This document shows, piece after piece, positions 39,927 to 57,281 of a stretch of 64,000 nucleotides of DNA. The position numbers and the translations under genes are program-made. The stretch lies in NCBI RefSeq assembly GCF_000620505.1, contig NZ_JIBC01000007.1:310001-374000 (forward strand). The letters are read 5' to 3'. Below the pieces are notes generated by a model that made no database searches, was not told the DNA's origin, and saw only the letters and a list, made by a program, of their open reading frames with translations. Numbering within the stretch: the stretch's first letter is position 1; the number at the start of each line of letters is the position of its first letter. The stretch is from Sulfitobacter sp. 20_GPM-1509m (lineage in GTDB: Bacteria > Pseudomonadota > Alphaproteobacteria > Rhodobacterales > Rhodobacteraceae).

Positions 39927-41600
39927 CTACCCACCCAAATCGACAGGCCCATGTTCGGCATAGGCATCTCCGGGGCCGGGATTGGAAGGATGCGAATGAC
40001 CGCCCAGATGGGTCATCACGCCCCAGACCGCATTCAGGGCCGTTTGTACCGCCCCTTCGACCCATGCGGGCGTCCAGCTGATGCCGTCGCCCGCCAGAAA
40101 CAGGCCACGCTGTTCGGGTGACATCCGGGATTGCTCGAAATGCCCGTACATGCGGTAGTTATAGCGGTAATGCCCCGGCAACGCGCCCTTGAACGCGCCC
40201 AGGAAATTCTCGTCGCTTTCCCAGCTGACCGTGATGGGGTTGCCGATGATATGCTGGGTGATGTCCACCTTGGGATAGATCTTGCGCAGCGCGTCCAGCG
40301 CCAGGTCGACCCGCTTTTCAACGGGCAGCGGCTCCATCTTCAGCGCATCCGACATCCACGAATAGGTCAGGCACATCACCGCAGGCGCGTTGGGGCCATC
40401 TTCAAACAGATAGGTGCCACGGGTCATGCGGTCGGTCAGCGTCACGCTCATCACCTCGCGGCCCGTCTCCGGGTCGCGGTCGCGCCAGAACGGGCGGTCT
40501 ACCATCACAAAGGTTTTCGACGACTGCATATAACGGGTGCGGTCCAGCGCCATCCACATATCCTGCGCCAGCAGCCGTTCCTCGAAATCCATCGACGTGG
40601 TCATCAGCCAGCTTTGGCAGGTGCTGATCAGCGCGTCGAATGTCTCGACACGGCCCCAGCGGTCGGTCACTTCGAACGGGCCATCGTCGCCCTGCTTGCG
40701 CACTTTCACCACCCCCGGCCGGGTCGATCCGCCGTGCAGTTTCTCCAGCGTCATCCCTTCGGGCCAGTGCACCATCTTGTCGGGGCTGCGGGTCCACAGG
40801 CCGCGCGGCACCTGTTCGACGCCGCCGACCATATAGTGTTGATCGTCATCCAGCCCCAGCAAGTTCACCCGCAGGATTTCCAACATTGAATTCGGAAAAT
40901 CACTGTCCCATCCGCCGGTGCCGAAACCGACCTGGCCAAAGACCTCGCGGTGCCGGAACGACAGTTTTTTGAACGCGTCGGACGAGGCGATAAAGTCGTA
41001 AAAACTGCGGTCGTCCCAGGCCCGTGCAATGGGGTTCCACAGTTCCTTGACCAACGCGGCATCGCGGGCCTTGATCGCCGCTTGCAAGGCGCCGAACTGG
41101 GCGTGATCCTCCAGCGCCTGCTGATAGGCGGCCCCGACCTCGCGGAACAGCGGCGGCAGGTCGTCGATGGTTTCGGCATAAAGCGTCTCGCCCGCCAGGT
41201 CGATGACAGTTGATCCTGCGGCCTTGGTCAGCGGGTTCGGAAAGGGCCGCGTCTCAATCCCCAGCATATCGACATAGTGATAAAAGGCGGTGGACGAGAG
41301 CGGGAAGCGCATACCGCCAAGCTCTGCGATGGCATTGGTGGTGCCCTCAAAGCTTTGGCTGCGCAGCCGTCCGCCGAATTGGCCGGATTCAAAGACGACG
41401 GGGCGCAGGCCCAGCTTCATCAGCTCATAGGCACAGATCACCCCGGAGATACCCGCGCCGATAATACCCACCGTGCGCCCGTGGCTTTCGGCGGGCACCT
41501 CGCCCAAGCCTGCGGGATTGGTGATCCAGTCGTCAAAGGCGAAGGTAAAGTCGGGGCCAAAGGCGGTGACATAGGGTTTGGGTCTGGGGTCAGATGTCAT
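39927..41600 (-). CDS. davB: Flavin amino-acid 2-monooxygenase, DavB-like (lysine 2-monooxygenase)
   Basis: DavB oxidatively decarboxylates L-lysine with O2 to 5-aminovaleramide; the related IaaM converts Trp to indole-3-acetamide. The 557 residues (start MTSDPRPKPY at 41600) carry the FAD-binding GAGISG (48-53), followed by ELMKLGLRPVVFESG, and a C-terminal FAD segment FLAGDGISWTPAWVEGAVQTAL. As far as I can recall the Pseudomonas DavB sequence, this one is very close throughout, including GPDFTFAFDDW, AELGGMRFP and YMQSSKTFVMVDRPFW. Its start lies 11 bases inside the davA-like gene. Lysine as substrate is by homology; Trp or another amino acid is possible. Confidence 0.82.
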   Translation of the reverse strand: MTSDPRPKPYVTAFGPDFTFAFDDWITNPAGLGEVPAESHGRTVGIIGAGISGVICAYELMKLGLRPVVFESGQFGGRLRSQSFEGTTNAIAELGGMRFPLSSTAFYHYVDMLGIETRPFPNPLTKAAGSTVIDLAGETLYAETIDDLPPLFREVGAAYQQALEDHAQFGALQAAIKARDAALVKELWNPIARAWDDRSFYDFIASSDAFKKLSFRHREVFGQVGFGTGGWDSDFPNSMLEILRVNLLGLDDDQHYMVGGVEQVPRGLWTRSPDKMVHWPEGMTLEKLHGGSTRPGVVKVRKQGDDGPFEVTDRWGRVETFDALISTCQSWLMTTSMDFEERLLAQDMWMALDRTRYMQSSKTFVMVDRPFWRDRDPETGREVMSVTLTDRMTRGTYLFEDGPNAPAVMCLTYSWMSDALKMEPLPVEKRVDLALDALRKIYPKVDITQHIIGNPITVSWESDENFLGAFKGALPGHYRYNYRMYGHFEQSRMSPEQRGLFLAGDGISWTPAWVEGAVQTALNAVWGVMTHLGGHSHPSNPGPGDAYAEHGPVDLGG

Positions 41601-42405
41601 CGCGTGTCGTTCCAGTTTCGGTGTAAATCTCGGGGCGGCGGTCGTGCAGATAGCGCACGGCTTGGCGGGTGCGCGCAATCTCGGCCCGGTCAAGATCGGC
41701 AACGATCAGCCCCGGGCCCCGACCCGCCCGCGCAATGTCGCGGCCATCGGGCGCACAGACGCAGGACAATCCGCAATAGTCGAAATCACCTTCGCTGCCG
41801 CAATAATTGGCATAGACCATAAAGATCCCGTTTTCCTCGGCCCGTGCGGGGACCAGCCGCGTGGCGACACTGTCATAGGGGATCATGTTGGCGGTGGGTG
41901 TCAGCACCAGATCTGCCCCGTCCAGCGCATAGGCGCGGGACAATTCGGGAAACTCGATGTCATAGCAAATCGCCAGCGCAACCTGCCAGCCGTTCCACGA
42001 CACCACCCGCGCGCGGGCATGCCCCGCCTGAAACTGCGCACGGTCCACATCACCGTAAAGATGGGTCTTGCGGTAGTGTGCGATGCGCGCCCCCGCCGCG
42101 TCGATCAGTTGCACGGCGTTGAAGGGCGCACCGCCCTGTGGGTCAGCCTGCGGATAGCCATACAGGATCGCCAGCCCGTGACGCCGCGCGATATCGGCCA
42201 CCTGTGCGGCGTTGGGTCCATCGGCAGGTTGCGCCAGTTCCAGAACGCGGGCTGCACCGATGTTATAGCCGGTCAGATACATCTCGGGCGTGACCAGCAG
42301 ATCGCAACCTGCGGCCTTGGCCTGTGCTGCATATCCGTCCAGTTGTTCAAGACAATGCGCCACACCCGACGACGCCGGAGCAATCTGCATACATGCTATT
42401 TTCAC
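41590..42405 (-). CDS. davA: Nitrilase-superfamily amidase, DavA-like (5-aminovaleramidase)
   Basis: DavA hydrolyses 5-aminovaleramide to 5-aminovalerate and ammonia. I place the start at GTG 42405 (VKIACMQIAP), because AGGAGG lies five bases upstream; the frame is open to 42444. In this 271-residue form the catalytic triad is E41 (VTPEMYLTGYN), K113 (YRKTHLYG) and C147 (AICYDIEFPE). The sequence follows Pseudomonas DavA closely in TPEMYLTGYNIG, THLYGDVDR, TANMIPYD and YANYCGSE. Overlap with davB and the pairing of monooxygenase and amidase support the two-step pathway. Confidence 0.82.
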   Translation of the reverse strand: MKIACMQIAPASSGVAHCLEQLDGYAAQAKAAGCDLLVTPEMYLTGYNIGAARVLELAQPADGPNAAQVADIARRHGLAILYGYPQADPQGGAPFNAVQLIDAAGARIAHYRKTHLYGDVDRAQFQAGHARARVVSWNGWQVALAICYDIEFPELSRAYALDGADLVLTPTANMIPYDSVATRLVPARAEENGIFMVYANYCGSEGDFDYCGLSCVCAPDGRDIARAGRGPGLIVADLDRAEIARTRQAVRYLHDRRPEIYTETGTTRDDI

Positions 42406-42450
42406 CCAGGCCTCCTGTGTCCGCCCTGCCCTTTGCTCCGCCAAGTGTTG

Positions 42451-43956
42451 CTACATTTGGGCGTCCGCATCCAGCGGCCAAATGGGACGGCGCACGTTGA
42501 CGTAGGGGCGTCGGCTCATTTGCGGCGTGGACAGCGCGCCGCTGTCGCACACAATCACCTTGCCCGCGATCGGCTCGAACGCGGCGCGAAAGTGCTGCAT
42601 GGATTTCACTGCAACGACCGATTTCTGCTCGGGCTGAATGCCGAATGTCTTGAACTGTTGCAGGTCCAGCATCTGATCCCGTTCCGTCGTCACCAGAATG
42701 TCGATGCCGTCCACCCGCAGAACCGCCGTGGGGCCAAAGCTGCGGCGCAACCCACCCAGCATCGGCCCGTCGCCGGTCAGCCACCCGTCCGAGATGTGCA
42801 TGATCTGGCCGCTCAACGTCAGCGGCCCGCCGCCAAAGGCCGGATCGTTCTTGCCGCCAAGTTCCAGCGTTACCGCGTCGCCGACAGCCCCCGCGCACAG
42901 TGCGGCGGCAGCGTCCGGGTCGATCATCGGGGCAAAGGTCGCGTTTTTCAGCCCGGCGTCCAGCATGGCAGCCAGCAGATTGGTCGCATCGCCGTAAGCA
43001 CCCGATCCGGGGTTGTCGGCATAATCCGCGATCACCAGCGGCCCCTTGGCCGTGTCGAACGATGTGGCGACCGCACAGGCATCTTCGACGCTTAGGAAAT
43101 CGTTGGCGATGCTGTTGCGCGCCTCCCAGATTTCCGCCGCGATCTGCTGGGAAATGGTGTGGGCACGTGCCTCGGCTCCATCGGTCTTGGTGTCATAGGT
43201 GACCAGAACCGTGGGGCCCATGTCGTGAATATCCGCATCGCTGAAGCCTGCGTTGATCGACACGCAGTGAATGCCTGCTTCGGTCTCGTGGTCCAGTGCG
43301 CGCGCATAGAGCGGCACGATCGGCCCCACGTCGGTGCGCCCGCCGTTGGGATCATCCAGCATCGGACAGGCCACGCGGCAGGTTTTCGGGTGGCTTTTGC
43401 CCGCCATCGCGGCCTCAAGAATACGGCCCGCTTGTTGCCCGCGTTCACGCAGATCGATGTGGGGGTAGGTCTTGTAGGACACGATGATATCGGCCAGTTC
43501 CGCCATCTGCGGGGTCACGTTGCAATGCAGGTCCAGCGTGGTGGCGATGGGCATGTCCGGTCCCACGATGTCGCGCAGACGTTGCAACAATTCGCCCTCG
43601 CCGTCCTCGCAGAATTCGGTGACCATGGCCCCGTGCATGGCCAGCAGGATGCCGTCCAATGTGTCCTTGTGCTGTTCAACGGCCGCGCAAATCTTGCCTG
43701 CCACATGCTCGAATGCGTGCCGCGACACCTTGGACCCCGGCACGGCATAGGCGGAAATCACATGGGTCAGGTCCCAACCCGCTTCGTCGGCCACATCGGT
43801 AAACCCGGACAGGCCGGTGTTGCCGTCGGACAGACGCGCCAACGCCTCGTCACCTTCCATCAGCGCATCGACCTCAAAGTTATGCAGCTCGGTCAGGCCC
43901 TTTTTGAACGTGTTGCTTTCATGAAGAAATTCGGCAGTGAGGACATGGTGCGTCAT
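42451..43956 (-). CDS. M81 family metallohydrolase (MlrC-like)
   Basis: The 501 residues form the two M81/MlrC domains. Putative metal-site residues are in EFLHESNTF near the N-terminus, AMHGAM, DLHCNVTPQM and YKTYPHIDLRERG. The founding member, MlrC, cleaves a linear tetrapeptide containing unusual and D-residues during microcystin breakdown; most family members have no known substrate. It starts three bases after the last transporter ATPase gene and precedes davA, so it should act on the imported material, either as a peptidase or as an N-acyl amino acid deacylase. Confidence 0.88.
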   Translation of the reverse strand: MTHHVLTAEFLHESNTFKKGLTELHNFEVDALMEGDEALARLSDGNTGLSGFTDVADEAGWDLTHVISAYAVPGSKVSRHAFEHVAGKICAAVEQHKDTLDGILLAMHGAMVTEFCEDGEGELLQRLRDIVGPDMPIATTLDLHCNVTPQMAELADIIVSYKTYPHIDLRERGQQAGRILEAAMAGKSHPKTCRVACPMLDDPNGGRTDVGPIVPLYARALDHETEAGIHCVSINAGFSDADIHDMGPTVLVTYDTKTDGAEARAHTISQQIAAEIWEARNSIANDFLSVEDACAVATSFDTAKGPLVIADYADNPGSGAYGDATNLLAAMLDAGLKNATFAPMIDPDAAAALCAGAVGDAVTLELGGKNDPAFGGGPLTLSGQIMHISDGWLTGDGPMLGGLRRSFGPTAVLRVDGIDILVTTERDQMLDLQQFKTFGIQPEQKSVVAVKSMQHFRAAFEPIAGKVIVCDSGALSTPQMSRRPYVNVRRPIWPLDADAQM

Positions 43957-43959
43957 GGG

Positions 43960-44910
43960 TTATCCTTGGATTGGGTGAAAACAGGCGACAGGGTGTGGTC
44001 CGCGGCTCAGCACGGGAACCGTCTCGCGGCATTTGGCGGTGACATTTGGACAGCGCCCGGCAAAAGCGCAGCCGCGCGGCAGGTCGAAACCGCTGGGGAT
44101 CTCGCCGGTCAGTTCGGTGGCCTCCTGACGGGTGTCTGGATCGGGGGCAAAGGTGCTGGCCATCAGCGCGCGGGTGTAAGGATGGCGTGGGGCAGCATTG
44201 GGATCGGGCAATTCCTCAACCACTGCGCCCAGATACATCACCACGATGCGATTGCAGAAATAGCGGACCAGCCCAAGGTCGTGGCTGATGAACAGGTAAG
44301 TCAGGTCCAGATCGCGCTGCAGTTGCTGGATCAACGACACGATCTGCGCCTGAATGGATACGTCCAGCGACGCCGTAGGCTCGTCCAGCACGATAAAGTC
44401 CGGGTTCAACGCCAGGGCGCGCGCAATGCCGACCCGCTGACGTTGCCCGCCGGACAACTGGTGGGGATAGCTTTGTGCCATTGAGTTGGGCAGGCCGACC
44501 TTTTCCAAAAGCTCGGCAATGCGCCCCTCCGGCACACGCGCGCCTTGCACCACAAAAGGTTCTGCCAGCGCATCCGCCACCCGATACCGCGGATCAAGAG
44601 AGGAATATGGATCTTGGAACACCATCGCCATACGCTGGCGCATCTTGCGCAGGTCACGACGGCTTAGCTGCGTCAGGTCGGCCCCTTCAAAGCAGACAGC
44701 ACCTTTGGTCGGCTCAATCAGCCGCAACACCAGACGGGCCAGCGTGGACTTGCCACACCCGCTTTCGCCAACCACGCCGACGATATCGCCACGTGCAATC
44801 GACAGCGACACATCACGGACCGCCAACATGCTGCGCGGTTTTTTCAGGAACCCGCCGGGGGTATCGAACCGCTTGGACAGGGACTGGATTTTGACAAGAG
44901 GTTCAGACAT
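43960..44910 (-). CDS. Oligopeptide ABC transporter ATPase (DppF/OppF type)
   Basis: The 316 residues have Walker A GESGCGKS, signature LSGGQRQRVGIARAL and Walker B FIVLDEPTASLD, then the oligopeptide-family C-terminal region with a Cys-rich segment CAFAGRCPNVTAKCRE that can bind an iron-sulfur centre in relatives. It overlaps the upstream ATPase gene by eight bases and is three bases from the M81 gene. Confidence 0.93.
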   Translation of the reverse strand: MSEPLVKIQSLSKRFDTPGGFLKKPRSMLAVRDVSLSIARGDIVGVVGESGCGKSTLARLVLRLIEPTKGAVCFEGADLTQLSRRDLRKMRQRMAMVFQDPYSSLDPRYRVADALAEPFVVQGARVPEGRIAELLEKVGLPNSMAQSYPHQLSGGQRQRVGIARALALNPDFIVLDEPTASLDVSIQAQIVSLIQQLQRDLDLTYLFISHDLGLVRYFCNRIVVMYLGAVVEELPDPNAAPRHPYTRALMASTFAPDPDTRQEATELTGEIPSGFDLPRGCAFAGRCPNVTAKCRETVPVLSRGPHPVACFHPIQG

Positions 44911-45868
44911 CCAGCGCTCCGTTCAAAGGGTAATGGCAAGCGACCGTGCCCGCGTCGGACAGGCCGCGCTGAACAGGAACCTTGGTGTCGCAACCTGCAC
45001 CCGCGCGCGGGCAGCGGGGGTGAAACCGGCAACCTGCAGGATAGGCCGTGGCCGATGCCACGTTGCCGGGAATGCCTGTCAGCGATCCGGGTGCCATGCC
45101 CTCGCGGGGGATACAGTCGATCAGGGCGGCTGAATAGGGATGCTGCGGGCTGGCAAACAGCGCATGCACCGGCTTTTGCTCGGCCAGCCGGCCCGCATAG
45201 AGCACCGCCACCTTGTCACAGGCCTGTGCCACAACGCCCATGTCGTGCGTGATCAGCACCAGCGCCAGACCGCGTTCACGCACCAGACGCGTCAGCAGAT
45301 GGATGATCTGCGCCTGAACCGTGACATCCAGCGCCGTCGTCGGCTCGTCCGCGACGATCAGGTCGGGATTGCCCGCCAATGCCATCGCGATGACGATACG
45401 TTGCTTCATGCCACCAGACAGCTGGTGCGGATAGGCCGAACAGATGGTGTCAGCCTGCGGGATGCGCAGTTGGGTCAGCAGTTCGATGGTGCGCGCCCGC
45501 GCCTCCTTGCGGTCCAGACCCAGATGCGTGCGGGACACGAAATCAACCTGTGGGCCAATCCGCTGAACGGGATCCAGCGCCGTCATCGGGTTTTGCGTGA
45601 TGAACGCGATCCGCCGCCCGCGCAGCGCGCGCAGCTTGCGCTTTGGCAGCGTGGCAAGGTCGGTGCCGTCAAATTCCAGCGATCCTGCGGTGACGCGCCC
45701 GCCGATCAGCGGCAGCAAGCCGGTCAGCGCAAGTGCCGTCAGCGATTTGCCCGATCCGCTTTCGCCAACCAGCCCCATGATCTCGCCCTTGGCCAGGTCA
45801 AAGCTGACGCTTTCCAGCAGGGTCAGGGTGCCGATGCCCACCGACAGGTTTTTGACACTCAGCAACAT
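44903..45868 (-). CDS. Oligopeptide ABC transporter ATPase (DppD/OppD type)
   Basis: The 321 residues start [13 protein letters not shown] at 45868, where the ATG overlaps the permease stop by one base; the frame stays open upstream to 46543, but that part is only the shadow of the permease gene. Walker A is GESGSGKS, signature LSGGMKQR, Walker [13 protein letters not shown], and the C-terminal [14 protein letters not shown] is the expected cysteine motif. Confidence 0.93.
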
Positions 45869-46734
45869 CAGCTTTCCCGCACGCGCGCGCGCACGTCCAG
45901 CGCATGGATCAGCGCATCGCCGAACAGGTTGATCGCAAAGACGGTCACGGCCACGGCCACCCCCGGAATGATGATGATCCACGGCGCCTTGAACATCTGC
46001 GCCGTGCCCGACGACATCAGCCCGCCCCAACTGGGTGTCGGAGGCTGCGCGCCAAGGCCGAAGAACCCCAGCGTCGCCTCGAGGATGATCGCGTCCCCCG
46101 TGGCCAGCATCGCGGCGACAATCACCGGTGCCAGCGTGTTGGGCAAAAGGTGGCGCATCAGGATATGCCCGTGGCTTGCGCCCAAGGACCGCGACGCCTC
46201 GACAAAGGTTTCCGATTTGATCGCCATGATCTGCGAGCGCGTCAGCCGGGTGAACAGTGCCAGATAGGCCACTCCGATGGCGACCATCGCACCGGTGACA
46301 CCGGGGCCGATGATGGCCACCAGTATGAGCGCCACCAGAATTTCGGGGAACGACCACGTCAGATCGATCACCGCCGTCACCGCGCGGTCGAACCGGCCTC
46401 CGAAATAGCCAGACGCAGCCCCCAGGCACATGCCGCAGAAAACCGAGATACCAATCGCAATCGTTGACACGCTCAACGAGGTCCGCGCGCCGTACATGAT
46501 GCGCGTCAGCATATCGCGGCCGAACTCGTCGGTGCCCAGCCAATGCGCCGCATCCGGTGCTCGGAACGCATTGGGCAGGTCCTGAATGTCGTATTCATAA
46601 GGTGTCAGGTACGGCGCAAAGACCGCAACGAACACCACCAGTATCAGCCAGGTGCCTGCGATCACGCCCTTGGGTCGGCACATGACGCGACCCAATGTGG
46701 TGTCGGACAGTTTCAACGCGACCACCCCCATCAC
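45868..46734 (-). CDS. Oligopeptide ABC transporter permease (DppC type)
   Basis: The 288-residue inner-membrane protein has the features AHWLGTDEFGRDMLTRIMYGARTS and an EAA loop (FVEASRSLGASHGHILMRHLLPN) with six hydrophobic segments. It overlaps the DppB-type gene by four bases. Confidence 0.93.
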   Translation of the reverse strand: MMGVVALKLSDTTLGRVMCRPKGVIAGTWLILVVFVAVFAPYLTPYEYDIQDLPNAFRAPDAAHWLGTDEFGRDMLTRIMYGARTSLSVSTIAIGISVFCGMCLGAASGYFGGRFDRAVTAVIDLTWSFPEILVALILVAIIGPGVTGAMVAIGVAYLALFTRLTRSQIMAIKSETFVEASRSLGASHGHILMRHLLPNTLAPVIVAAMLATGDAIILEATLGFFGLGAQPPTPSWGGLMSSGTAQMFKAPWIIIIPGVAVAVTVFAINLFGDALIHALDVRARVRES

Positions 46735-47654
46735 AATGCCGCCCTGACGCGCGGGTCCATGGCCGCCTGAATAAGGTCGCCCGCCAAGGTGCCCAGCATC
46801 ACCGCCATAGCCAGGATCAGCAGACAGGCCTGAACCACGGGATAATCATGCTGGTTCAGCGATTTGATCAGCAGGGTGCCCAATCCGGGACGGGCAAAGA
46901 CCACCTCGACCGTGACCGCGCCGCCCAGGATCCAACCGATGCGCAGCGACAGAATAGTGACCACAGGAATAAGCGCGTGCCGCAGCACATGGCGCAATTG
47001 AATGCGTGCGGGGCGCATCCCCTTGGCGTGCAAAAGCATCAGGAAATCGCGCTGGCCCGCCTCGACCATCGCCACGCGGGTCACCCGGGCAACCAACGCG
47101 GTGCCGCCCAGACCCACAGTCAGAACCGGCAAAACCATCGCCGACCAGTCGCGCGCGCCTGACACCGGGAACATGCCCAGCCAGACGGAAAACACGAGGA
47201 TCAGCAAAAGCCCCAGCCAGAACCCCGGAACGGTGGAGCCAAGCAGCACAACCGTCATGATCAGCTGGTCGGGCCAACGGTCACGGTTCAGCGCCGCGAT
47301 CGTGCCCAGAACAATCCCGAAAAAGGTCGAGAACGCCAGTGCACACAATCCCAGCGCCAGCGAGTGCGGCAAGGCTTGGGCGATCAGGTCTGCCACCGGC
47401 CTGCGGGCGACGATGGCTGTGCCCAGATCACCTTGAAGCACACCGCTGAGCCAGATCCAGTATTGCACCGCCAGCGGCTTGTCCAAGCCATAGCGCGCGG
47501 TCATGATCTCGCGCTGTTCCGGTCCTGCGCCGATCTTCAGAAGGTTGTCGATCGGATCGCCTGGTATCAGGTGGATGATCGAAAAGATCACCATCGACAC
47601 CGCAAGGGAAACGGGGATCAGAACCAGCACCCGCCTGATAAAATAGCCCAGCAT
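46731..47654 (-). CDS. Oligopeptide ABC transporter permease (DppB type)
   Basis: The 307-residue permease opens MLGYFIRRVLVLIPVSLAVS with IIHLIPGDPI, the DppB signature, and has the EAA loop DFLMLLHAKGMRPARIQLRHVLRH. It begins 20 bases after the binding-protein stop. Confidence 0.93.
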   Translation of the reverse strand: MLGYFIRRVLVLIPVSLAVSMVIFSIIHLIPGDPIDNLLKIGAGPEQREIMTARYGLDKPLAVQYWIWLSGVLQGDLGTAIVARRPVADLIAQALPHSLALGLCALAFSTFFGIVLGTIAALNRDRWPDQLIMTVVLLGSTVPGFWLGLLLILVFSVWLGMFPVSGARDWSAMVLPVLTVGLGGTALVARVTRVAMVEAGQRDFLMLLHAKGMRPARIQLRHVLRHALIPVVTILSLRIGWILGGAVTVEVVFARPGLGTLLIKSLNQHDYPVVQACLLILAMAVMLGTLAGDLIQAAMDPRVRAAL

Positions 47655-47674
47655 GTCTGATCCCCGCCTGACGC

Positions 47675-49243
47675 TTATTCGACCGGAGCCATGTCCATCA
47701 GCACGGTCGACCCGATGCCCGGCGCATCAAACACTTCGGGCATGGAAATCCGCGACGTGTTGTACCCAACGCTGACAACGGGCTGGTAGATCGGGGCGAA
47801 TGGAAACTGCGAAAGGACGTATTCGTGATAGGCGGTAAAGTTCGCGATCCGCTCGTCCGAGCTTTTTGATCCGGTCATGGCCGCAGCGCGCAGCTCTTCG
47901 GCCTTGGGGTCGTTGAACATCGAGATGTTCGGATAGCCCAGACGGTCACCCCCAAAGAACCAGTCCACGATATCGGCGTTGTCCCAGACATAGGAGCGCA
48001 CCGCGACCTGCTGTTCGCCGGATTTGTACTGGTCGCGGATCATGGCGCTGTCAAAGGTGGCGATCTCGGCGCTGATGCCCACGGCTTTCAGTTGCGCCTG
48101 CACCACTTCTGACAGACGGCGGAACACGCTGTCGCTTTGTGTCCACAAGGACACCTCGAGCGGCTGGCCGTCCTTCATGCGCACGCCATCCGCGCCCATG
48201 GTCCAACCGGCTTCGTCCAGAAGGGCGTTGGCCTTGTCAGGGTTGAACGAGATCCGGTAGTCATCGGCCACTTTCGCTTCGGGCAGTGCCGATATCAGGA
48301 AGGTGTCCGCCACCTGCCCGATGCCGCCATAGATGTTGTCCAGAATTTCCTGCTGGTTGATCGCAAGGGCCGCGGCCTCGCGCACCTTGATGTCGGTGAA
48401 GGGTTCCTTGACCACGTTCATGACCATGTAAACCAGCTCGCGCCCCGGAACACTGACCAGCTTCAGGTCGCTTTGCTTTTCAACCTCGGGAACAAAATCG
48501 GCAGGGACCGACAGCAGCATATCGACACCGCCGGTTTTCAGCTCGAGGAAGGCGGTCGAGGCTTCGGCGATCTCGCGGAATGTCAGGTGTTCGAACTTGG
48601 CAGGACCTGTGTTCTTGGCCACGGGCGAGCCCCAGGTGTAATCGTCGTTGCGCACCAGAACGGTTTGCTGGCCGATGTCGAAGCTTTCCAGCTTGTAGGG
48701 CCCTGTGCCGATGGTTTCGGTCACACCAAAATTCTCGCCCATGGCGACAAAGGATTTGGGTTCGGGCACGCCCATGATGGCAAGGTTGTACAGCAGGTTC
48801 GGTTCGGGATGTTTCATCACGAACTTCACTGTGTATTCGTCCACAACCTGAATGCTGTCGATGGCCGCAGTGTAATAGGCGTTGTCGGTGCCGTCATACA
48901 GCGGCAGCCAGTCCGCTATGGTCTGCGCATTGAAGGGCACACCGTTGTGGAAGGTCACACCTTGTTTCAGGTGGAACACCCACGACATGCCGTCCTCGGC
49001 CTCTTCCCAGCTTTCGGCCAGATGCGGATGATAGCTGCGCGCCGCGTCCACCTCGACCAGCCGGTCGAAGATCAGAAAGCTGGCAGCGTTCGTCAGAATG
49101 GCCGTGACAGGGTTATAGCTGGTCAGGCCGACCGTGTTGGACGGCAAAACAATCGTGGCCTCCTGCGCAAAGACAGCCGGGGCCGTTGCAATGATCGCAG
49201 CGACAGACACGCTTGCGGCCAGCAGATGTTTGGTGAACTTCAT
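47675..49243 (-). CDS. Oligopeptide-type ABC transporter substrate-binding protein
   Basis: This is a family 5 periplasmic binding protein for the importer encoded downstream. The 522-residue precursor has a signal peptide (1-26, ending AVFAQ), then LAESWEEAEDGMSWVFHLKQGVTFHNGVPFNAQT and IKVREAAALAINQQEIL, which are typical of the family. GGAAGG lies upstream. It follows the RpiR gene by 36 bases on the same strand and so is probably co-transcribed with it. Confidence 0.92.
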   Translation of the reverse strand: MKFTKHLLAASVSVAAIIATAPAVFAQEATIVLPSNTVGLTSYNPVTAILTNAASFLIFDRLVEVDAARSYHPHLAESWEEAEDGMSWVFHLKQGVTFHNGVPFNAQTIADWLPLYDGTDNAYYTAAIDSIQVVDEYTVKFVMKHPEPNLLYNLAIMGVPEPKSFVAMGENFGVTETIGTGPYKLESFDIGQQTVLVRNDDYTWGSPVAKNTGPAKFEHLTFREIAEASTAFLELKTGGVDMLLSVPADFVPEVEKQSDLKLVSVPGRELVYMVMNVVKEPFTDIKVREAAALAINQQEILDNIYGGIGQVADTFLISALPEAKVADDYRISFNPDKANALLDEAGWTMGADGVRMKDGQPLEVSLWTQSDSVFRRLSEVVQAQLKAVGISAEIATFDSAMIRDQYKSGEQQVAVRSYVWDNADIVDWFFGGDRLGYPNISMFNDPKAEELRAAAMTGSKSSDERIANFTAYHEYVLSQFPFAPIYQPVVSVGYNTSRISMPEVFDAPGIGSTVLMDMAPVE

Positions 49244-49279
49244 GGTAATTGTACCTTCCCTATGTTGGCGCTTTTTTGA

Positions 49280-50179
49280 TTATTTTTTGCTTGTGTCGGA
49301 CCGCGCGCCGAGGTGTCCGACAAAGGTGTTGTAGCCTGCAGAAATCGCGGCCATCCGCTCTTCGACATCTGCGCCCAGTTCGTTGAACACACCGTTCACC
49401 GTCAGGCTGATCAGGCTGGAAATGGGCGCCGTGTTGTCCCAGAACAGGTTCAGTTCGGTCGGCACGGCAAAGGTTTCATCCGCCAGCCCCGCATCCCACG
49501 TGCAATAAGGATCGGTGATCAGCGACACTTTCACACCGCGCTCCTTGGCGGCGCGGGCCAGCTTTTCGGCCATGCGGGAATATTTGCGGCCGTCGATGAC
49601 AACCAGACAGGACTGCGCAGGATCGCCCTGCAACAACTCGGAGAACGTGCCGCCCTCCTGATCGGCCAACCAGACACCGGGGCGCAGGTATTGCAATCCA
49701 TTGGCCAGATACTGGGCCTGACCGCGCTCGGCCTGAAACCCCGCGACAAAGACCTGCGGCGTGTGCGCCAGCCGCTTGACCATGGTTTCAAAAGGCTTGC
49801 TGCCCGCCATTTCGTAGACCGCGACAAGGGCCGCAATCTCAAGCTCCAGCGCGCGGCTCAGTTCGGCGCCACCGCTGCGGGAGCGTGCATGAAAATCCTT
49901 CAGCCGGTCGCCGATCAACCACGCACTGTCGCCCAGGTCAGCCTGAAGCCGTGATTTCAGCTCTTTGAAACTGTCCAGCCCGATGCTGCGGCAATACCGC
50001 CCGACACTGGCCTCAGACACGCCGATCTTGGTCGCGAGGGTTGAGGCCGTCTCGAAGGGAAGCGTTTTGATGTTGGTCATCATGTAGCTTGCAATGGCTT
50101 TTTCGCCCTTGGTCCCACCCTCGACGCTGTCGGCCAGCAATTGCTGAACGCTGACCGAAATATTGTCTGGATGCGCCAT
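49280..50179 (-). CDS. RpiR/MurR-family transcriptional regulator
   Basis: The 299 residues join an N-terminal RpiR helix-turn-helix (about 10-85, with ASTLATKIGVSEASVGRYCRSIGLDSFKELKSRL) and a SIS sugar-isomerase-like domain (about 125-265). SIS domains usually sense phosphorylated sugars, although members next to amino-acid and peptide genes are common. It is the first gene of a ten-kilobase operon and is divergent from the racemase gene, so it probably controls both directions. A GAAAGCTTTC palindrome sits in the gap. Confidence 0.9.
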   Translation of the reverse strand: MAHPDNISVSVQQLLADSVEGGTKGEKAIASYMMTNIKTLPFETASTLATKIGVSEASVGRYCRSIGLDSFKELKSRLQADLGDSAWLIGDRLKDFHARSRSGGAELSRALELEIAALVAVYEMAGSKPFETMVKRLAHTPQVFVAGFQAERGQAQYLANGLQYLRPGVWLADQEGGTFSELLQGDPAQSCLVVIDGRKYSRMAEKLARAAKERGVKVSLITDPYCTWDAGLADETFAVPTELNLFWDNTAPISSLISLTVNGVFNELGADVEERMAAISAGYNTFVGHLGARSDTSKK

Positions 50180-50223
50180 GGCGCCCTCCCCCTTGAAGCC
50201 ATCTGTTGTGACTCGAAATGACA

Positions 50224-50233
50224 GAAAGCTTTC
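50224..50233. promoter_or_regulatory. Perfect palindrome in the RpiR divergent region
   Basis: GAAAGCTTTC is a perfect 10-base palindrome, flanked by TGAC on the left (50219-50222) and GTCA on the right (50239-50242). It lies between the divergent starts at 50179 and 50306 and is a reasonable operator candidate for the RpiR protein. Confidence 0.4.
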
Positions 50234-50305
50234 ATAATGTCAATCTTGCAATATTTGTATCTCTGGATTACACGTGACCCAACCTCGCCAAACCAAGGGT
50301 TCGAC

Positions 50306-51442
50306 ATGACGGACATTTCCAGACAGACCCGCGCACCGCTGACCATAGACAGGGCCGAACTGCGGCTGGTCCGGATGCCGTTGTTGCAGCCTTTCGTGAT
50401 CTCGACCGGCACGATGCATGACCGCATTTTCCCGCTGCTGACGCTCTGTTCAGGCGATCACGAGGGGTATGCCGAAGGGGTCATGGATCCCCTGCCCGAC
50501 TATCTTGGCGAAACGCTGCCCGCTGCGATGGCGCTGCTGAAGGAACTGTTCCTGCCGATGATCGTCGGAAAATCCTTTGAGAATCCGGCGGCACTGGACG
50601 CGCTTCTGGCCCCGTGGCGCGGCCACCAGATGACAAAGGCAACCGTCGAGATGGCATTCTGGGACCTGTGGGCCAAGTCACTGGACCTGCCACTGCAAAC
50701 CCTTCTGGGCGGAACCGGGAATGCGATAGACGCAGGCGTTTCGCTGGGGATCGGGTCCATCGACGACACTGTCGCGCGCGTGGCCGATCATCATCGACAG
50801 GGTTACAAACGGATCAAGCTCAAGATCAAGCCCGGGCACGACATCGCGCTGGTCCGTGCGGTGCGCGCGGCCTTTCCCGACATCCGGCTGAGTGTGGACG
50901 CCAATGCCTGCTACACGCTGGCCGACGCGGGTTTGCTGCAAAAGCTGGACGATCTGGCGCTGGATTACATCGAACAACCGCTGGCTTGGGACGACATTCA
51001 GGACCACGCAGTTTTGCAGAAACGGATGACAACGCCGATCTGTCTGGACGAATGCATCAACTCGGTCCGCGCCTGCCGTCAGGCGCTTCAGGCTGATGCG
51101 GCGCGGGTGATCAACATCAAGGTGGCGCGGTCGGGCGGATATCACACGGCGCTGAAAATGCACGATCTGGCGGCGGCCTTTGACGTGCCTGTCTGGTGCG
51201 GCGGCATGCTGGAATCAGGCATCGGGCGCGCGCACAACATCCACCTGTCGACCTTGCCGAACTTTACCAAACCCGGCGATGTGTCCAGCGCCAGCCGCTA
51301 TTTTGCGCGCGACATCATCAACGAACCGCTCGAGGCAACCGACGGGCGCATGGCGGTGCCCCAAGGCGCGGGCATCGGCGTGACGCTGGATGAAAGTTTT
51401 CTGTCAGAGATGACCATTTCCACCGAAAGCTTTTCCGCATGA
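50306..51442 (+). CDS. N-succinylamino-acid racemase / OSBS-type enolase
   Basis: This 378-residue enzyme belongs to the muconate-lactonising subgroup of the enolase superfamily and to the MenC/NSAR branch. The KxK motif (K171, K173) and K272 are the two catalytic lysines; D198 (SVDAN), E223 (IEQPL) and D248 (LDEC) bind Mg. The C-terminal GGMLESGIGRAHNIHLS and LPNFTKPGDVS are diagnostic of the NSAR/OSBS branch. With no men genes nearby and a succinyltransferase-like GNAT gene overlapping its end, NSAR function is favoured over menaquinone synthesis. Start 50306 has AAGGG seven bases upstream; an ATG at 50237 is in frame but unlikely. Confidence 0.83.
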   Translation: MTDISRQTRAPLTIDRAELRLVRMPLLQPFVISTGTMHDRIFPLLTLCSGDHEGYAEGVMDPLPDYLGETLPAAMALLKELFLPMIVGKSFENPAALDALLAPWRGHQMTKATVEMAFWDLWAKSLDLPLQTLLGGTGNAIDAGVSLGIGSIDDTVARVADHHRQGYKRIKLKIKPGHDIALVRAVRAAFPDIRLSVDANACYTLADAGLLQKLDDLALDYIEQPLAWDDIQDHAVLQKRMTTPICLDECINSVRACRQALQADAARVINIKVARSGGYHTALKMHDLAAAFDVPVWCGGMLESGIGRAHNIHLSTLPNFTKPGDVSSASRYFARDIINEPLEATDGRMAVPQGAGIGVTLDESFLSEMTISTESFSA

Positions 51443-52155
51443 CACCGCCGGTGATCCGCGAATTGTCCGGCGTGGCAGAGTTCACCGCGGCCGAAGCCCT
51501 GCAGCGCGCGGTCTGGGGTCAGGATGATCTGGTCGATCCCTATGATCTGATGATGGTCATCCAGCACGAAGGCGGCCTTGCCGCCGGCGCCTTTTCGGGC
51601 GACGAACTTGTCGGCTATGTCTTCGGCTTTCCCACACGCGATCCGCACATCCAGCATTCGCACCGGCTTGCGGTGCTGCCAGCGATGCAGGGCATGGGAT
51701 TGGGCGCGCGTCTGAAATGGTTTCAGCGCGACTGGTGTCTGGCACGCGGCATCACCCATGTGCGCTGGACCTTCGACCCGCTGCGCGCGGCCAATGCGGC
51801 ACTGAACGTGGGCAAGCTGGGCGTGATCGTCGACACCTATATGGCCGACTATTACGGCAAAATGGTGGGTATCAACGCGGGCACCCCCTCTGATCGGTTG
51901 ATGGCAGACTGGTTTCTCGACACCGCGCATGTGGCCGACCGCGCGGCACGGATTGCGCAGGTCCATCCTGATGCCGCACGGCGCGTGACCATTCCAGCGG
52001 ATTTCGCAGCCCTGCTTGCCTCGAACCCGGACAAGGCGTTGGCCGAAAGGTTGCGCGTGAGAGAACAGATTGGCCGCGCCTTGGAAGAGGGTCTTGTTAT
52101 CAACGGGTTTGTAGCGGATCAGTCGTGCTATGTTTTTACGAAACGTGCAGCATAA
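51439..52155 (+). CDS. GNAT-family N-acyltransferase (NSAR-associated, COG3375-like)
   Basis: The 238-residue GNAT protein has the acyl-CoA-binding segment RLAVLPAMQGMGLGARLKWFQRDWCLARGI (about 70-100), followed by VRWTFDPLRAANAALNVGKLGV, a pattern of the group found beside N-succinylamino-acid racemases. In the Geobacillus pathway such a protein succinylates D-amino acids before racemisation. It overlaps the racemase gene by four bases, so the two proteins are co-translated. Confidence 0.8.
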   Translation: MTPPVIRELSGVAEFTAAEALQRAVWGQDDLVDPYDLMMVIQHEGGLAAGAFSGDELVGYVFGFPTRDPHIQHSHRLAVLPAMQGMGLGARLKWFQRDWCLARGITHVRWTFDPLRAANAALNVGKLGVIVDTYMADYYGKMVGINAGTPSDRLMADWFLDTAHVADRAARIAQVHPDAARRVTIPADFAALLASNPDKALAERLRVREQIGRALEEGLVINGFVADQSCYVFTKRAA

Positions 52156-52498: not shown

Positions 52499-55381
52499 TT
52501 GTCTCTATTCTTTATCGTCGCTTTGCCATTCCTGGGTGCGCTGCTTCCTGGATTGATGAACTCTGCCGGACGTTCGGCCACGGCGGGCGTCACGTTCACC
52601 GTGACGCTGGCAGCCTTTGTGGGCCTTCTGACCAACCTGCCTGCCGTGCTTGCGGGCAATGTGGTGATGGCGCGGGTCGACTGGATGCCGCTGCTGGGGC
52701 TTAACTTTTCGTTGATGCTGGACGGGCTGGGCTTTTTCTTTGCCTTGCTGATCCTTGGCATCGGCCTGTTGATCATCGCCTATGCGCGCCACTATCTCAG
52801 CCGCGACGACAATATGGGGCAATTCTTCACCTATCTGCTGCTGTTCCAAGGCGCGATGGTGGGCATTGTCATGAGCGACAACATCCTGCTTTTGCTTGTT
52901 TTCTGGGAACTAACATCGCTGTCGTCCTTCCTGTTGATCGGATATTGGAAACACCTGCCCGAAGGGCGTCAGGGCGCGCGCATGGCGTTGACGGTCACCG
53001 GCATGGGTGGCCTTGCAATGATCGGTGGCATGTTGATGCTGGGCCAGATCGTCGGCAGCTATGACCTGAGCGTGATCTTGCAGAACCGCGAGTTGATTCA
53101 GGCAGATCCGCTGTACGTGCCTGCGCTGGTGTTGATTCTGCTGGGCGCGTTCACCAAGTCGGCGCAGTTCCCGTTCCACTTCTGGTTGCCGCACGCGATG
53201 GCGGCGCCGACGCCTGTGTCTGCCTATCTGCACTCGGCCACGATGGTAAAGGCGGGCATCTTCCTGATGGCGCGCATGTGGCCGGTGCTGTCGGGCACGC
53301 CTGAGTGGTTCATGATCGTCACCACGGCAGGTTTGATCACGATGGTTCTGGGCGCGGTGATTGCGCTGTTCAAACATGACCTGAAGGCGCTGCTGGCGTT
53401 TTCGACGGTCAGCCATCTGGGCCTGATCACCATGCTGTTGGGCACAGGCACCGCATTCGGTGCGATGGCCGCGGTGTTCCATATTCTGAACCACGCGACG
53501 TTCAAGGCGGCGTTGTTCATGTCTGCGGGCATTATCGATCACGAGGCGCACACGCGCGACATTCGCCGTTTGGGCGGATTGCGCAGGTTGATGCCCATAA
53601 CCTTTGTCATTGCCAGTCTGGCGGCACTTTCGATGGCCGGGATTCCGTTGCTGAACGGGTTCCTCTCCAAGGAAATGATGCTGGAAGAAGCGTATCACAC
53701 TGTCCTGTTCGGCTCGCCCCTGCTGGTGCCGGTGCTGGCGACGGTCGGATCGTTGTTCTCTGCCGCCTATTGCTTCCGGTTGATCGGGCACGTGTTCTTT
53801 GGCCCCGTGCGCGACGACTATCCGGCCAAGCCGCATGACCCCAACACCGGCCTTTGGCTGCCGCCTGCCTTGCTGGTTGTTCTGGTCGTGGCGATTGGCG
53901 TGGCACCGTTCCTGGCCGAACCCTTTGTGAAACTGGTGACGGCATCGGTTCTGGGCGACGCGGCCGCGGTGCCGACGGCGTATTTCAAGATCTGGCACGG
54001 GCTTGTGCCTGCGCTGTACATGTCGCTGATCGCCATTGCGGGCGGCTTGCTGATGCTGGCGCTGTTCAAACCGGCCCTGTTCGTCTGGGACAAGGCACCG
54101 CGCCCCGAGGCCAAAGTCATCTTTGAGGCTATCGTCGAGGCGGTCGCGAAGCTGGCGCGTGCGGTGATTCACGCGACGCACAACGGTGCGTTTTCGCGCT
54201 ATGCGGCAATTGCCTTGGTGGTCATGGTCGCTGTCGGGTATCACGCATGGTCCACCGGCACGGTCGGCCCCGACACACGCACGGTGCAATATGCACCGCC
54301 CGTGTTCATCGCGGCCTGGCTGATGCTGGCGACGGCCACTGCGGGACTGGTCATATTGCACCGCAACCGGCTGCTGTCGCTGATCCTGATCGGCATCGTG
54401 GGCCTGATGGTGTCCATCGGCTTTGTGTTCTTCAGCGCGCCCGATCTGGCGATGACCCAATTCACCGTCGAAGTCGTCACTATCATCCTGTTGTTGCTGG
54501 CCCTGAACTTCCTGCCCAAGACCACCCCCGTGGAAAGCACAGTATTGCGCCGCGTGCGTGACACAGGTGTGGCGGTGCTGGGGGGGCTGGCGACGTTCGC
54601 GCTGTCCTTCCACTATTTGCTGCGCGACGCGGTCAGCACGCCAATCTCGGAATTCCACCTTGCCAATTCCTATAAGGGCGGCGGCGGTACGAATGTCGTG
54701 AACGTCATTCTTGTCGATTTCCGTGGCTTTGACACCTATGGCGAGATCATCGTGTTGGGCATCGCTGCTCTGCTGATCTATGCGATGACCGAAACGCTTC
54801 TGGACGGTCCGGTGCGGGCGCGATTGTTGAACCGCAAACCCGATCAGGCACGGTCGGGCAACAAGCATCCGATGATGATGGTCGTGCTGACGCGGGTCAT
54901 CATGCCGGTTGTTCTTATGGTCGGTTTCTACATCTTCTTGCGCGGTCACAATGAACCGGGCGGTGGGTTTATCGCGGGCCTGATCGTGTCCATTGGCGTC
55001 GTGATGCAGTATATGGCCAGCGGCTTTGGCTGGGCGTCGGCGCGGTTGCGGTACCCCTATCACGGGGTGATCGGAGCGGGCGTTCTGATTGCGGGGCTGA
55101 CCGGCATCGGATCATGGTTCTTTGGCAAACCTTTCCTGACCTCTGATTTCACCTATGTCCGCATTCCACCGTTCGAAAAATTCGAACTGGCCACTGCTGC
55201 ACTGTTCGATCTGGGTGTGTTTCTGGCTGTTGTCGGCGCTGTGATGCTGTCACTGGAAAGCTTCTCGCGTCTGGCACGGCTGGCCGGATACCACGACAGC
55301 GACGAACCGATGGACATCGATCCCTTGCGCGACGACACCATAGCCGCGGGTCACGCCGCCGCCGAAAAGAAGGGAGTGTAA
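52499..55381 (+). CDS. mrpA: Na+/H+ (cation/proton) antiporter subunit A fused to B (MrpAB)
   Basis: This is the largest subunit of the Mrp antiporter, related to NuoL/NuoM of complex I. The 960 residues begin with a TTG codon, with TAGGAG upstream. The N-terminal two thirds is the proton-pumping module with the conserved Glu in VFWELTSLSSFLLIGYW, Lys in LLGAFTKSAQFPFHFWLPHAMAAPTPVSAYLHSATMVKAG-like segments, and many membrane helices. The C-terminal part, from about residue 795, is an MrpB domain (VLTRVIMPVVLMVGFYIFLRGHNEPGGGF), so A and B are fused as in group 2 (Pha-type) systems. Confidence 0.95.
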   Translation: MSLFFIVALPFLGALLPGLMNSAGRSATAGVTFTVTLAAFVGLLTNLPAVLAGNVVMARVDWMPLLGLNFSLMLDGLGFFFALLILGIGLLIIAYARHYLSRDDNMGQFFTYLLLFQGAMVGIVMSDNILLLLVFWELTSLSSFLLIGYWKHLPEGRQGARMALTVTGMGGLAMIGGMLMLGQIVGSYDLSVILQNRELIQADPLYVPALVLILLGAFTKSAQFPFHFWLPHAMAAPTPVSAYLHSATMVKAGIFLMARMWPVLSGTPEWFMIVTTAGLITMVLGAVIALFKHDLKALLAFSTVSHLGLITMLLGTGTAFGAMAAVFHILNHATFKAALFMSAGIIDHEAHTRDIRRLGGLRRLMPITFVIASLAALSMAGIPLLNGFLSKEMMLEEAYHTVLFGSPLLVPVLATVGSLFSAAYCFRLIGHVFFGPVRDDYPAKPHDPNTGLWLPPALLVVLVVAIGVAPFLAEPFVKLVTASVLGDAAAVPTAYFKIWHGLVPALYMSLIAIAGGLLMLALFKPALFVWDKAPRPEAKVIFEAIVEAVAKLARAVIHATHNGAFSRYAAIALVVMVAVGYHAWSTGTVGPDTRTVQYAPPVFIAAWLMLATATAGLVILHRNRLLSLILIGIVGLMVSIGFVFFSAPDLAMTQFTVEVVTIILLLLALNFLPKTTPVESTVLRRVRDTGVAVLGGLATFALSFHYLLRDAVSTPISEFHLANSYKGGGGTNVVNVILVDFRGFDTYGEIIVLGIAALLIYAMTETLLDGPVRARLLNRKPDQARSGNKHPMMMVVLTRVIMPVVLMVGFYIFLRGHNEPGGGFIAGLIVSIGVVMQYMASGFGWASARLRYPYHGVIGAGVLIAGLTGIGSWFFGKPFLTSDFTYVRIPPFEKFELATAALFDLGVFLAVVGAVMLSLESFSRLARLAGYHDSDEPMDIDPLRDDTIAAGHAAAEKKGV

Positions 55382-55382
55382 C

Positions 55383-57280: not shown

Positions 57281-57281
57281 T

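What the first reader, a model, noticed from the sequence alone, without database searches (positions are those of the whole stretch)
39927..52155. Possible complete D-amino-acid salvage and degradation system around an RpiR regulator
A divergent locus combines an oligopeptide importer, an RpiR regulator, a M81 hydrolase, DavA/DavB-like enzymes, an NSAR-type racemase and a GNAT acyltransferase. Known pieces are the Geobacillus-type D-to-L conversion (succinylation by GNAT, NSAR racemisation, desuccinylation) and the Pseudomonas DavBA route (L-lysine to 5-aminovaleramide to 5-aminovalerate). Joined, they could take D-lysine or D-residue peptides (for example from peptidoglycan) to 5-aminovalerate. 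I know of no description of such a joined system.
Basis: partly seen in the sequence, partly recalled or inferred. Interest (0 to 1): 0.8.

Follow-up and report, generated by a model that had tools for sequence, protein, structure and literature searches.

The report
D-peptide salvage cassette around RpiR
This is a gene set by which marine bacteria probably take up peptides with mirror-image amino acids, cut them and flip the freed amino acids to the usual form, with two lysine-degrading enzymes added in one genus; most of the set recurs in related bacteria, where the enzyme that deals with the mirror-image amino acid is sometimes exchanged for quite different ones.

Summary
The genes and family calls hold: DavB-like flavoenzyme, CN-hydrolase, M81, five Opp genes, RpiR, and divergent NSAR and GNAT. 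In a family sample the two other genomes with both have them apart. A smaller unit is conserved: GNAT-NSAR facing RpiR-Opp-M81, in 36 of 80 named NSAR loci (one rearranged). DavBA is a local addition.

New here: NSAR-linked M81s fall on one side of one tree branch (41 rows, SH-aLRT 99). Beside them lie M81s of the same RpiR-Opp-M81 operon with a D-arginine-dehydrogenase-like gene in the NSAR-GNAT slot (7 loci) or a D-ornithine/D-lysine-decarboxylase-like gene behind M81 (4 loci, one genus). Neither partner needs desuccinylation, so M81 is more likely the hydrolase of imported D-residue peptides than the desuccinylase. Characterised relatives of these partners and of DavB favour cationic amino acids, which softly suggests D-Lys, D-Arg or D-Orn. 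All functions are inferred; no desuccinylase is in the cluster, and the importer's substrate is unresolved.

The parts
39927..41600 (-). DavB-like L-lysine 2-monooxygenase / L-amino acid oxidase (ORF opens at 41702; likely ATG at 41600)
   Evidence: 891 bits, E 3e-267 to 3we0 L-AAO/MOG; start codons
41590..42405 (-). DavA-like carbon-nitrogen hydrolase (ORF opens at 42444; likely GTG at 42405 behind AGGAGG)
   Evidence: PF00795 165 bits; PEMY, RKTHLYG and ICYDIEFPE motifs found, their roles as catalytic Glu/Lys/Cys recalled; start
42451..43956 (-). M81 (MlrC-like) zinc hydrolase; proposed D-residue peptide hydrolase
   Evidence: PF07364, PF07171; the five residues that align with the MlrC zinc site (alignment, residues named in a passage of PMC12474180) are E13, H108, D142, H144, H166, invariant in 63 of 63 aligned rows
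43960..44910 (-). Opp/Dpp ATPase (OppF-like)
   Evidence: models below curated cut-off
44903..45868 (-). Opp/Dpp ATPase (OppD-like)
   Evidence: models below curated cut-off
45868..46734 (-). Opp/Dpp permease C
46731..47654 (-). Opp/Dpp permease B
47675..49243 (-). Substrate-binding protein of the peptide/nickel type, SBP_bac_5
   Evidence: PF00496 280 bits; best NCBIfam model NikA 198 bits, cut-off 393
49280..50179 (-). RpiR-type regulator
   Evidence: PF01418 42 bits; no SIS domain detected
50218..50251 (.). Conserved block in the divergent promoter, possibly RpiR operator plus -35 elements
   Evidence: Consensus TGaCAG.aa..Tt.Ca..c.GTCAATcTTGCAAg from 43 of 56 intergenic regions, 13 dropped; position
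50306..51442 (+). N-succinylamino acid racemase (NSAR), annotated as menC elsewhere (ORF opens at 50237)
   Evidence: 428 bits to 2ggg; K-x-x-R motif
51439..52155 (+). GNAT acyltransferase, proposed D-amino acid N-succinyltransferase
   Evidence: PF00583; 44% to the GNAT that lies 0.9 kb from NSAR on D. radiodurans MP1

Best explanation
An RpiR-controlled salvage cassette for peptides with D-residues, probably D-cationic ones. The Opp-type ABC importer brings in the peptide; the M81 zinc enzyme hydrolyses it in the cytoplasm and frees the D-amino acid; GNAT succinylates the alpha-amino group; NSAR inverts the C-alpha; a desuccinylase encoded elsewhere (perhaps M20) releases the L-amino acid. 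In this genus a DavB-like monooxygenase and a DavA-like amidase were added to the end of the operon, which would take L-lysine to 5-aminovaleramide and 5-aminovalerate. Shown: gene content, synteny, tree position, conserved active-site residues. Inferred: every catalytic step, the peptide substrate, the cationic preference and the regulation.
For: (1) Synteny: GNAT, NSAR, RpiR, Opp and M81 in 36 of 80 named NSAR loci, and in 35 of the 62 with at least 8.3 kb on the Opp side (one of these, L094, has Opp with a second RpiR apart from M81). (2) NSAR 428 bits to the Deinococcus enzyme; Arg at the K-x-x-R place in 89 of 90 close NSAR rows (some genes fetched twice; the other row did not match the pattern); no menD over cut-off in the genome. 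(3) NSAR and GNAT lie with RpiR and M20 in Deinococcus ficus and Priestia, and with ABC permeases, an SBP, beta-lactamase-fold hydrolases and a D-aminoacylase in two other Deinococcus. (4) M81 tracks NSAR: the six M81 at 656 bits or more among 295 family genomes lie in six of the nine genomes with a close NSAR; Fisher p 3e-9 without the window genome. (5) Partner exchange beside the same RpiR-Opp-M81 operon: a DauA-like gene faces RpiR in 7 loci (the L127 copy has DauA as its only PDB match at E 1e-20, best E 1e-80); a DokD-like gene follows M81 in 4 loci of one genus, each genome having another, stronger lysA. (6) Cationic bias: PaDADH has its highest kcat/Km with D-Arg and D-Lys (PMC10655190, passages); two other NSAR-GNAT loci have a binding protein whose best model is lysine/arginine/ornithine, 246 and 237 bits against cut-off 256; DavB here.
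Against: No assay. The importer is peptide-type by family only: the best NCBIfam model of its binding protein is the nickel protein NikA, below cut-off (198 of 393 bits). 26 of the 62 well-covered NSAR loci lack M81 and this Opp, so neither is needed for every NSAR-GNAT pair. Gemmobacter fulvus carries RpiR-Opp-M81 on a plasmid with no D-amino acid enzyme in the stretch shown, and several M81 of the neighbouring set stand without Opp or beside unrelated genes. On the tree the DauA label needs 4 changes, so that pairing is not one simple clade. NCBIfam gives the DauA-like proteins no model over cut-off (best ThiO, 53-79 bits). The two DokD-like copies tested score as well on the lysA model as on DokD (lysA 294-300 bits over all four, cut-off 297.9; DokD 264 and 286, cut-off 700), and all four come from one genus. 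PaDADH oxidises most D-amino acids. The place that I take for Cys254 of 3we0 (number recalled) is Leu in the window enzyme; if, as I recall, change there favours oxidase, the product could be a keto acid. A GNAT homologue in Microbacterium has no NSAR in the stretch shown.
Confidence: 0.6

Rival explanations
1. M81 is the desuccinylase of the pathway (in place of the M20 enzyme of Geobacillus-type clusters), and the importer brings in free or acylated amino acids.
For: M20 sits with GNAT and NSAR in Deinococcus ficus and Priestia, and M81 occupies a hydrolase slot here; M81 is next to RpiR with no Opp between in L092 and L094, so it is tied to NSAR and not only to the importer.
Against: The same operon with M81 occurs with a DauA-like or DokD-like gene instead of NSAR-GNAT (the eight family genomes of that M81 tier had no NSAR at E 1e-60), where nothing has to be desuccinylated. 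NSAR-GNAT with an amino acid importer has no M81 in the stretches shown. The window genome has M20 homologues elsewhere (34% and 33%).
Confidence: 0.2
2. Same cassette, but aimed at peptidoglycan stem peptides (D-Ala, D-Glu, meso-DAP) rather than at D-cationic residues; the decarboxylase-like partner would act on meso-DAP.
For: The ATPases' best models are dipeptide and murein-tripeptide types, below cut-off; the decarboxylase-like partner borders on the lysA model; a Rhodobacteraceae strain grows on peptidoglycan and several D-amino acids (PMC11747546, passages).
Against: PaDADH does not act on D-Glu or D-Asp and is best on D-Arg/D-Lys (PMC10655190, passages); PDB ranks DokD above DAP decarboxylases for the copy tested, 210 against 170 bits; none of the cluster's genes matched a murein-recycling enzyme.
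Confidence: 0.3
3. DavBA next to the cassette is chance co-location after rearrangement and handles an unrelated L-substrate.
For: DavB with or without the CN-hydrolase stands apart from NSAR in other genomes and on plasmid pTHAF37_b; outside the genus it is not beside NSAR in the samples searched; the cluster is plasmid-borne in strain SMR1.
Against: It lies in the same direction, about 11 bases of overlap inside the pair and a 45-base gap to M81; both genes stay with the cassette in 3 of 3 congeners that have it, the two others at 78-98% protein identity to the window.
Confidence: 0.25
4. The enolase-superfamily protein is an o-succinylbenzoate synthase for menaquinone, as public annotation (menC) says.
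For: TIGR01928 308 bits, over its cut-off; plasmid records annotate it menC.
Against: No menD over cut-off in the genome; NSAR-type K-x-x-R motif; genome context.
Confidence: 0.02

Closest known systems
Geobacillus-type D-to-L amino acid conversion (GNAT succinyltransferase, NSAR, M20 desuccinylase; recalled, Sakai and co-workers 2006)
   Same: NSAR of the same subfamily; a GNAT homologue beside it; GNAT and NSAR lie with M20 and RpiR in Priestia and D. ficus
   Different: No M20 in the cluster; an Opp-type importer and M81 under a divergent RpiR instead. The Geobacillus cluster itself was not fetched
Pseudomonas DavBA (L-lysine to 5-aminovalerate)
   Same: Flavoenzyme 891 bits to the Pseudomonas L-AAO/MOG; adjacent CN-hydrolase
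   Different: Sits at the end of a D-peptide operon; CsiD not found; Leu at the presumed Cys254 place
MlrC microcystinase (peptidase family M81)
   Same: Same domains and the five zinc-site residues; [quoted passage not shown]
   Different: 180 bits only; tied to RpiR-Opp and D-amino acid enzymes; MlrA, MlrB and MlrD were not searched for here
DauA / DokD D-cationic amino acid catabolism
   Same: Likely homologues stand beside the same RpiR-Opp-M81 operon in related lineages
   Different: Not in the window; there NSAR-GNAT takes that place

Membership tests
NSAR (NSAR/OSBS subfamily, enolase superfamily) | Sequence kinship to characterised NSARs | tested here: met
   428 bits to 2ggg, 273 bits to 1sja
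NSAR (NSAR/OSBS subfamily, enolase superfamily) | Catalytic Lys pair, metal ligands and NSAR-type Arg (R266; numbers and roles recalled) | tested here: met
   KLKIKPG, SVDAN, YIEQPL, CLDEC, INIKVAR found; Arg in 89 of 90 close NSAR rows, some genes twice
NSAR (NSAR/OSBS subfamily, enolase superfamily) | Racemisation of N-succinylamino acids | not testable with these tools
   needs assay
Geobacillus-type D-to-L pathway | GNAT beside NSAR | tested here: met
   adjacent here and found next to NSAR in 76 of 80 loci
Geobacillus-type D-to-L pathway | Desuccinylase (M20) in the cluster | tested here: not met
   none among the cluster's genes; M20 homologues elsewhere at 34% and 33%
DavBA pathway | DavB-type flavoenzyme with an adjacent CN-hydrolase | tested here: met
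DavBA pathway | Monooxygenase rather than oxidase on L-Lys | tested here: inconclusive
   Leu at the presumed Cys254 place; Leu also in L026 and L028, which have a neighbouring CN-hydrolase
Peptidase family M81 | DUF1485 + MlrC_C domains and five zinc-site residues | tested here: met
MlrC (microcystin degradation) | Curated MlrC model cut-off | tested here: not met
   206 bits against cut-off 999
RpiR family | HTH_6 plus SIS effector domain (recalled) | tested here: inconclusive
   HTH_6 found, no SIS match at E 0.001
DauA (partner in related loci, not in the window) | Closest solved structure is DauA | tested here: met
   L127 copy only, 275 bits; no NCBIfam model over cut-off for four copies
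DokD (partner in related loci, not in the window) | Curated DokD model cut-off | tested here: not met
   286 and 264 bits against cut-off 700; DokD is still the best PDB match of the L142 copy

The most novel reading that the evidence does not exclude
RpiR-Opp-M81 is a general uptake-and-hydrolysis cassette for peptides holding D-cationic residues (D-Lys, D-Arg, D-Orn). It gives one clade of the 'microcystinase' family M81 a physiological role, and lineages attach chemically different D-amino acid enzymes to it (NSAR+GNAT, DauA-like, DokD-like). Natural substrates could include D-Lys cyanopeptides such as anabaenopeptins.
Probability: 0.3. Interest if true: 0.75.

Novelty: new variant of a known kind. 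Interest (0 to 1): 0.58.

Why it matters
M81 proteins are common (115 of 295 family genomes have one at E <= 1e-20), yet the only activity that I met in the held library is microcystin breakdown. Linking one M81 clade to D-amino acid enzymes of three unrelated kinds would give that clade a testable substrate class. It would also give NSAR-GNAT, annotated menC in the records seen, a physiological role in Rhodobacterales and Rhizobiales, and point to genes for the turnover of D-residue peptides in the sea.

Tried and rejected
Menaquinone role for the racemase: rejected. M81 as desuccinylase: kept as a rival, lowered by the partner exchange. A general NSAR-DavBA system: rejected beyond the genus; co-occurrence in the family is weak (Fisher p 0.049 without the window genome). 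CsiD route: not found. GNAT against solved structures: no hit at E 0.1. Cys254 literature: the paper was not held. Searches for print on NSAR with M81, RpiR or Opp; no listed title or opening abstract lines joined them; most subscription journals are not held. PMC8142540 (passages) gave NSAR chemistry and kinetics only. RpiR motif: 13 of 56 intergenic regions did not fit the anchor and were dropped before the consensus; a stricter pattern was found in the promoter region of L127, L146, L148 and L176, but not in L124, L128, L131 or L140-L143; the one L129 match lies outside its promoter, so a shared operator across partner types is only partly supported. My neighbourhood script dropped overlapping hits and so hid the CN-hydrolase; one search corrected this. 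The M81 tree was a quick search with long-branch warnings, mostly among outgroup rows; one row (L136) was labelled NSAR by me because its genome's NSAR is on another contig. Structure prediction was not used.
Full report
WHAT IS THERE. The minus operon runs RpiR, SBP, two permeases, two ATPases, M81, CN-hydrolase, flavoenzyme; NSAR and GNAT face it. The racemase is closest to Deinococcus N-acylamino acid racemase and carries the K-x-x-R motif (its NSAR meaning recalled). The genome shows no menD over cut-off, so the public name menC is probably wrong. The flavoenzyme is closest to the Pseudomonas L-amino acid oxidase/monooxygenase. The importer is of the peptide/nickel family; its binding protein's best curated model is NikA, below cut-off, so its substrate is not settled by sequence.

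HOW FAR THE SET IS CONSERVED. In a sample of 295 genomes of 295 genera of the family, NSAR (E <= 1e-60) is in 11 (nine at 61% or more) and DavB in 12; both are in 3 (window genome, G034, G121) and adjacent only in the window genome. In G034 they lie 2.67 Mb apart on one contig; in G121 they are on different contigs. Fisher p for co-occurrence without the window genome is 0.049. In the genus, DavB and NSAR are both in 3 of 6 genomes, adjacent in all three with the CN-hydrolase, and both absent from the other 3. So DavBA looks like a genus-level addition.

A scan of named genomes gave 149 relatives of the racemase, of which the best 80 were kept. GNAT lies next to NSAR in 76 of 80, RpiR is in 61 of 80 loci, and 36 of 80 hold Opp, M81, RpiR and GNAT together, of which L094 is rearranged. 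Of the 62 loci with at least 8.3 kb on the Opp side, 35 have all, 26 lack both M81 and this Opp, and one has Opp without M81. Of 37 loci with M81, 34 have at least 1.8 kb beyond it; of all 80, only Pseudosulfitobacter pseudonitzschiae (L032) shows the CN-hydrolase and flavoenzyme. Other arrangements: RpiR with an amino acid importer, NSAR and GNAT but no M81 (L105, L107, L109-L111; Sulfitobacter plasmids); M81 next to RpiR with no Opp between (L092, L094); and an unlike Opp with NSAR and no GNAT hit (L096, L098, L100, L104).

DEEPER RELATIVES. GNAT homologues lie next to NSAR or within 1 kb of it in four Deinococcus records and in Priestia (28% there). Deinococcus ficus has RpiR, NSAR, SBP, GNAT, M20; Priestia has RpiR, M20, GNAT, NSAR; two other Deinococcus have NSAR, GNAT, permeases and SBP followed by beta-lactamase-fold hydrolases and an annotated D-aminoacylase, one of them with RpiR in view. 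D. radiodurans MP1 has NSAR, SBP and GNAT but neither RpiR nor a hydrolase next to them in the stretch shown, and a Microbacterium GNAT has no NSAR in view. So RpiR and a hydrolase recur with NSAR-GNAT, not always, and the kind of hydrolase changes.

THE PARTNER EXCHANGE. M81 searched in the same 295 genomes gave six hits at 656 bits or more, all in genomes with a close NSAR, then eight at 527-568 bits in genomes without NSAR. Five of those eight have the same RpiR-Opp-M81 order with a divergent FAD gene in the NSAR-GNAT slot, one of them cut by a contig end; the L127 copy matches D-arginine dehydrogenase DauA at E 1e-80 and no other solved structure at E <= 1e-20, though no NCBIfam model names it over cut-off. 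The other three have Opp-M81 without RpiR (L125) or M81 alone (L126, L130). A class sample of 385 genomes (36 of the 49 listed places outside the window genome taken as loci) added two more families with the DauA-like arrangement and four genomes of one genus with RpiR-Opp-M81 followed directly by a decarboxylase-like gene. The L142 copy is closest to D-ornithine/D-lysine decarboxylase in the PDB (210 bits; next DAP decarboxylase 170), though the lysA model scores it as high; each of the four genomes has another, stronger lysA (464-468 bits). In a tree of 95 M81 rows the 41 NSAR-linked rows are one side of one branch (SH-aLRT 99); the neighbouring set of 18 (97) holds 7 DauA-linked rows (4 changes of label), 4 decarboxylase-linked rows (one branch, 100), and 7 rows with neither. 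The five residues that align with the MlrC zinc site (PMC12474180, passages; alignment) are invariant in 63 of 63 rows.

MECHANISM. Since two of the three partner types need no desuccinylation, M81 most simply hydrolyses the imported compound and sets the D-amino acid free; NSAR-GNAT, the DauA-like or the decarboxylase-like enzyme then deals with it. PaDADH has its highest kcat/Km with D-Arg and D-Lys (PMC10655190, passages), DokD acts on D-Orn and D-Lys and slightly on D-Arg (PMC13294871, passages), and DavB follows on L-Lys. One related M81 (L145) lies next to a DgcN-like and an ornithine-racemase-like gene (158 and 327 bits, cut-offs 480), and one operon (L125) has an ornithine cyclodeaminase 2.3 kb before its SBP gene. 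These point to D-cationic residues, softly. D-Lys is conserved in cyanobacterial anabaenopeptins (PMC8402340, passages); this is only a possible source. A Rhodobacteraceae strain grows on D-Lys and other D-amino acids and on peptidoglycan (PMC11747546, passages); whether it has this cassette was not checked.

RESULTS AGAINST. A plasmid of Gemmobacter fulvus holds RpiR-Opp-M81 with no D-amino acid enzyme in the stretch shown. Some related M81 stand without Opp (L126, L130, L144, L145, L147, L149). The promoter motif is shared only in part between partner types. The desuccinylase is not in the cluster; M20 homologues lie elsewhere. The NikA-type scores of the binding protein leave the importer's substrate open.

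REGULATION. A block at 50218-50251 between RpiR and NSAR is conserved (consensus from 43 of 56 intergenic regions, 13 dropped) and may hold the RpiR operator and both -35 elements (inference).

JUDGEMENT. The pieces are known; I found no description of the conserved NSAR-GNAT / RpiR-Opp-M81 unit, of the partner exchange or of this role for an M81 clade in the held library (listings and opening abstract lines seen). New variant of a known kind.

Noticed in passing
window contig G000:C5; L115: In P. pseudonitzschiae SMR1 the whole cluster lies on the 428-kb plasmid pSMR1-1; the window contig is of similar size (419,631 bases).
   Followed up: partly
52499-57782: The next plus-strand genes match a monovalent cation/H+ antiporter (Mnh) operon on another Pseudosulfitobacter plasmid.
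   Followed up: no
G000:C12:96776, C2:539062, C5:300160: Three further M81 paralogues (32-36%) in the same genome; the C12 one has an Opp-type importer next to it and the C2 one has Opp-type ATPase hits about 7 kb away.
   Followed up: no
L145:6259-8675: A related M81 next to a DgcN-like and an ornithine-racemase-like gene, both below model cut-off.
   Followed up: partly
39927-41600: The presumed place of Cys254 of the Pseudomonas L-AAO/MOG is Leu in the window and in several relatives, Cys in L020-L022, Gln in L023-L024.
   Followed up: partly
49280-50179: RpiR-type regulator with HTH_6 but no SIS effector domain detected.
   Followed up: no
L094:3156-9900: Two RpiR copies, one before Opp genes and one beside M81-NSAR-GNAT, as if the operon had been split.
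   Followed up: no
L118:6115-6992: On D. radiodurans MP1 the binding protein between NSAR and GNAT is annotated as two overlapping CDS.
   Followed up: no
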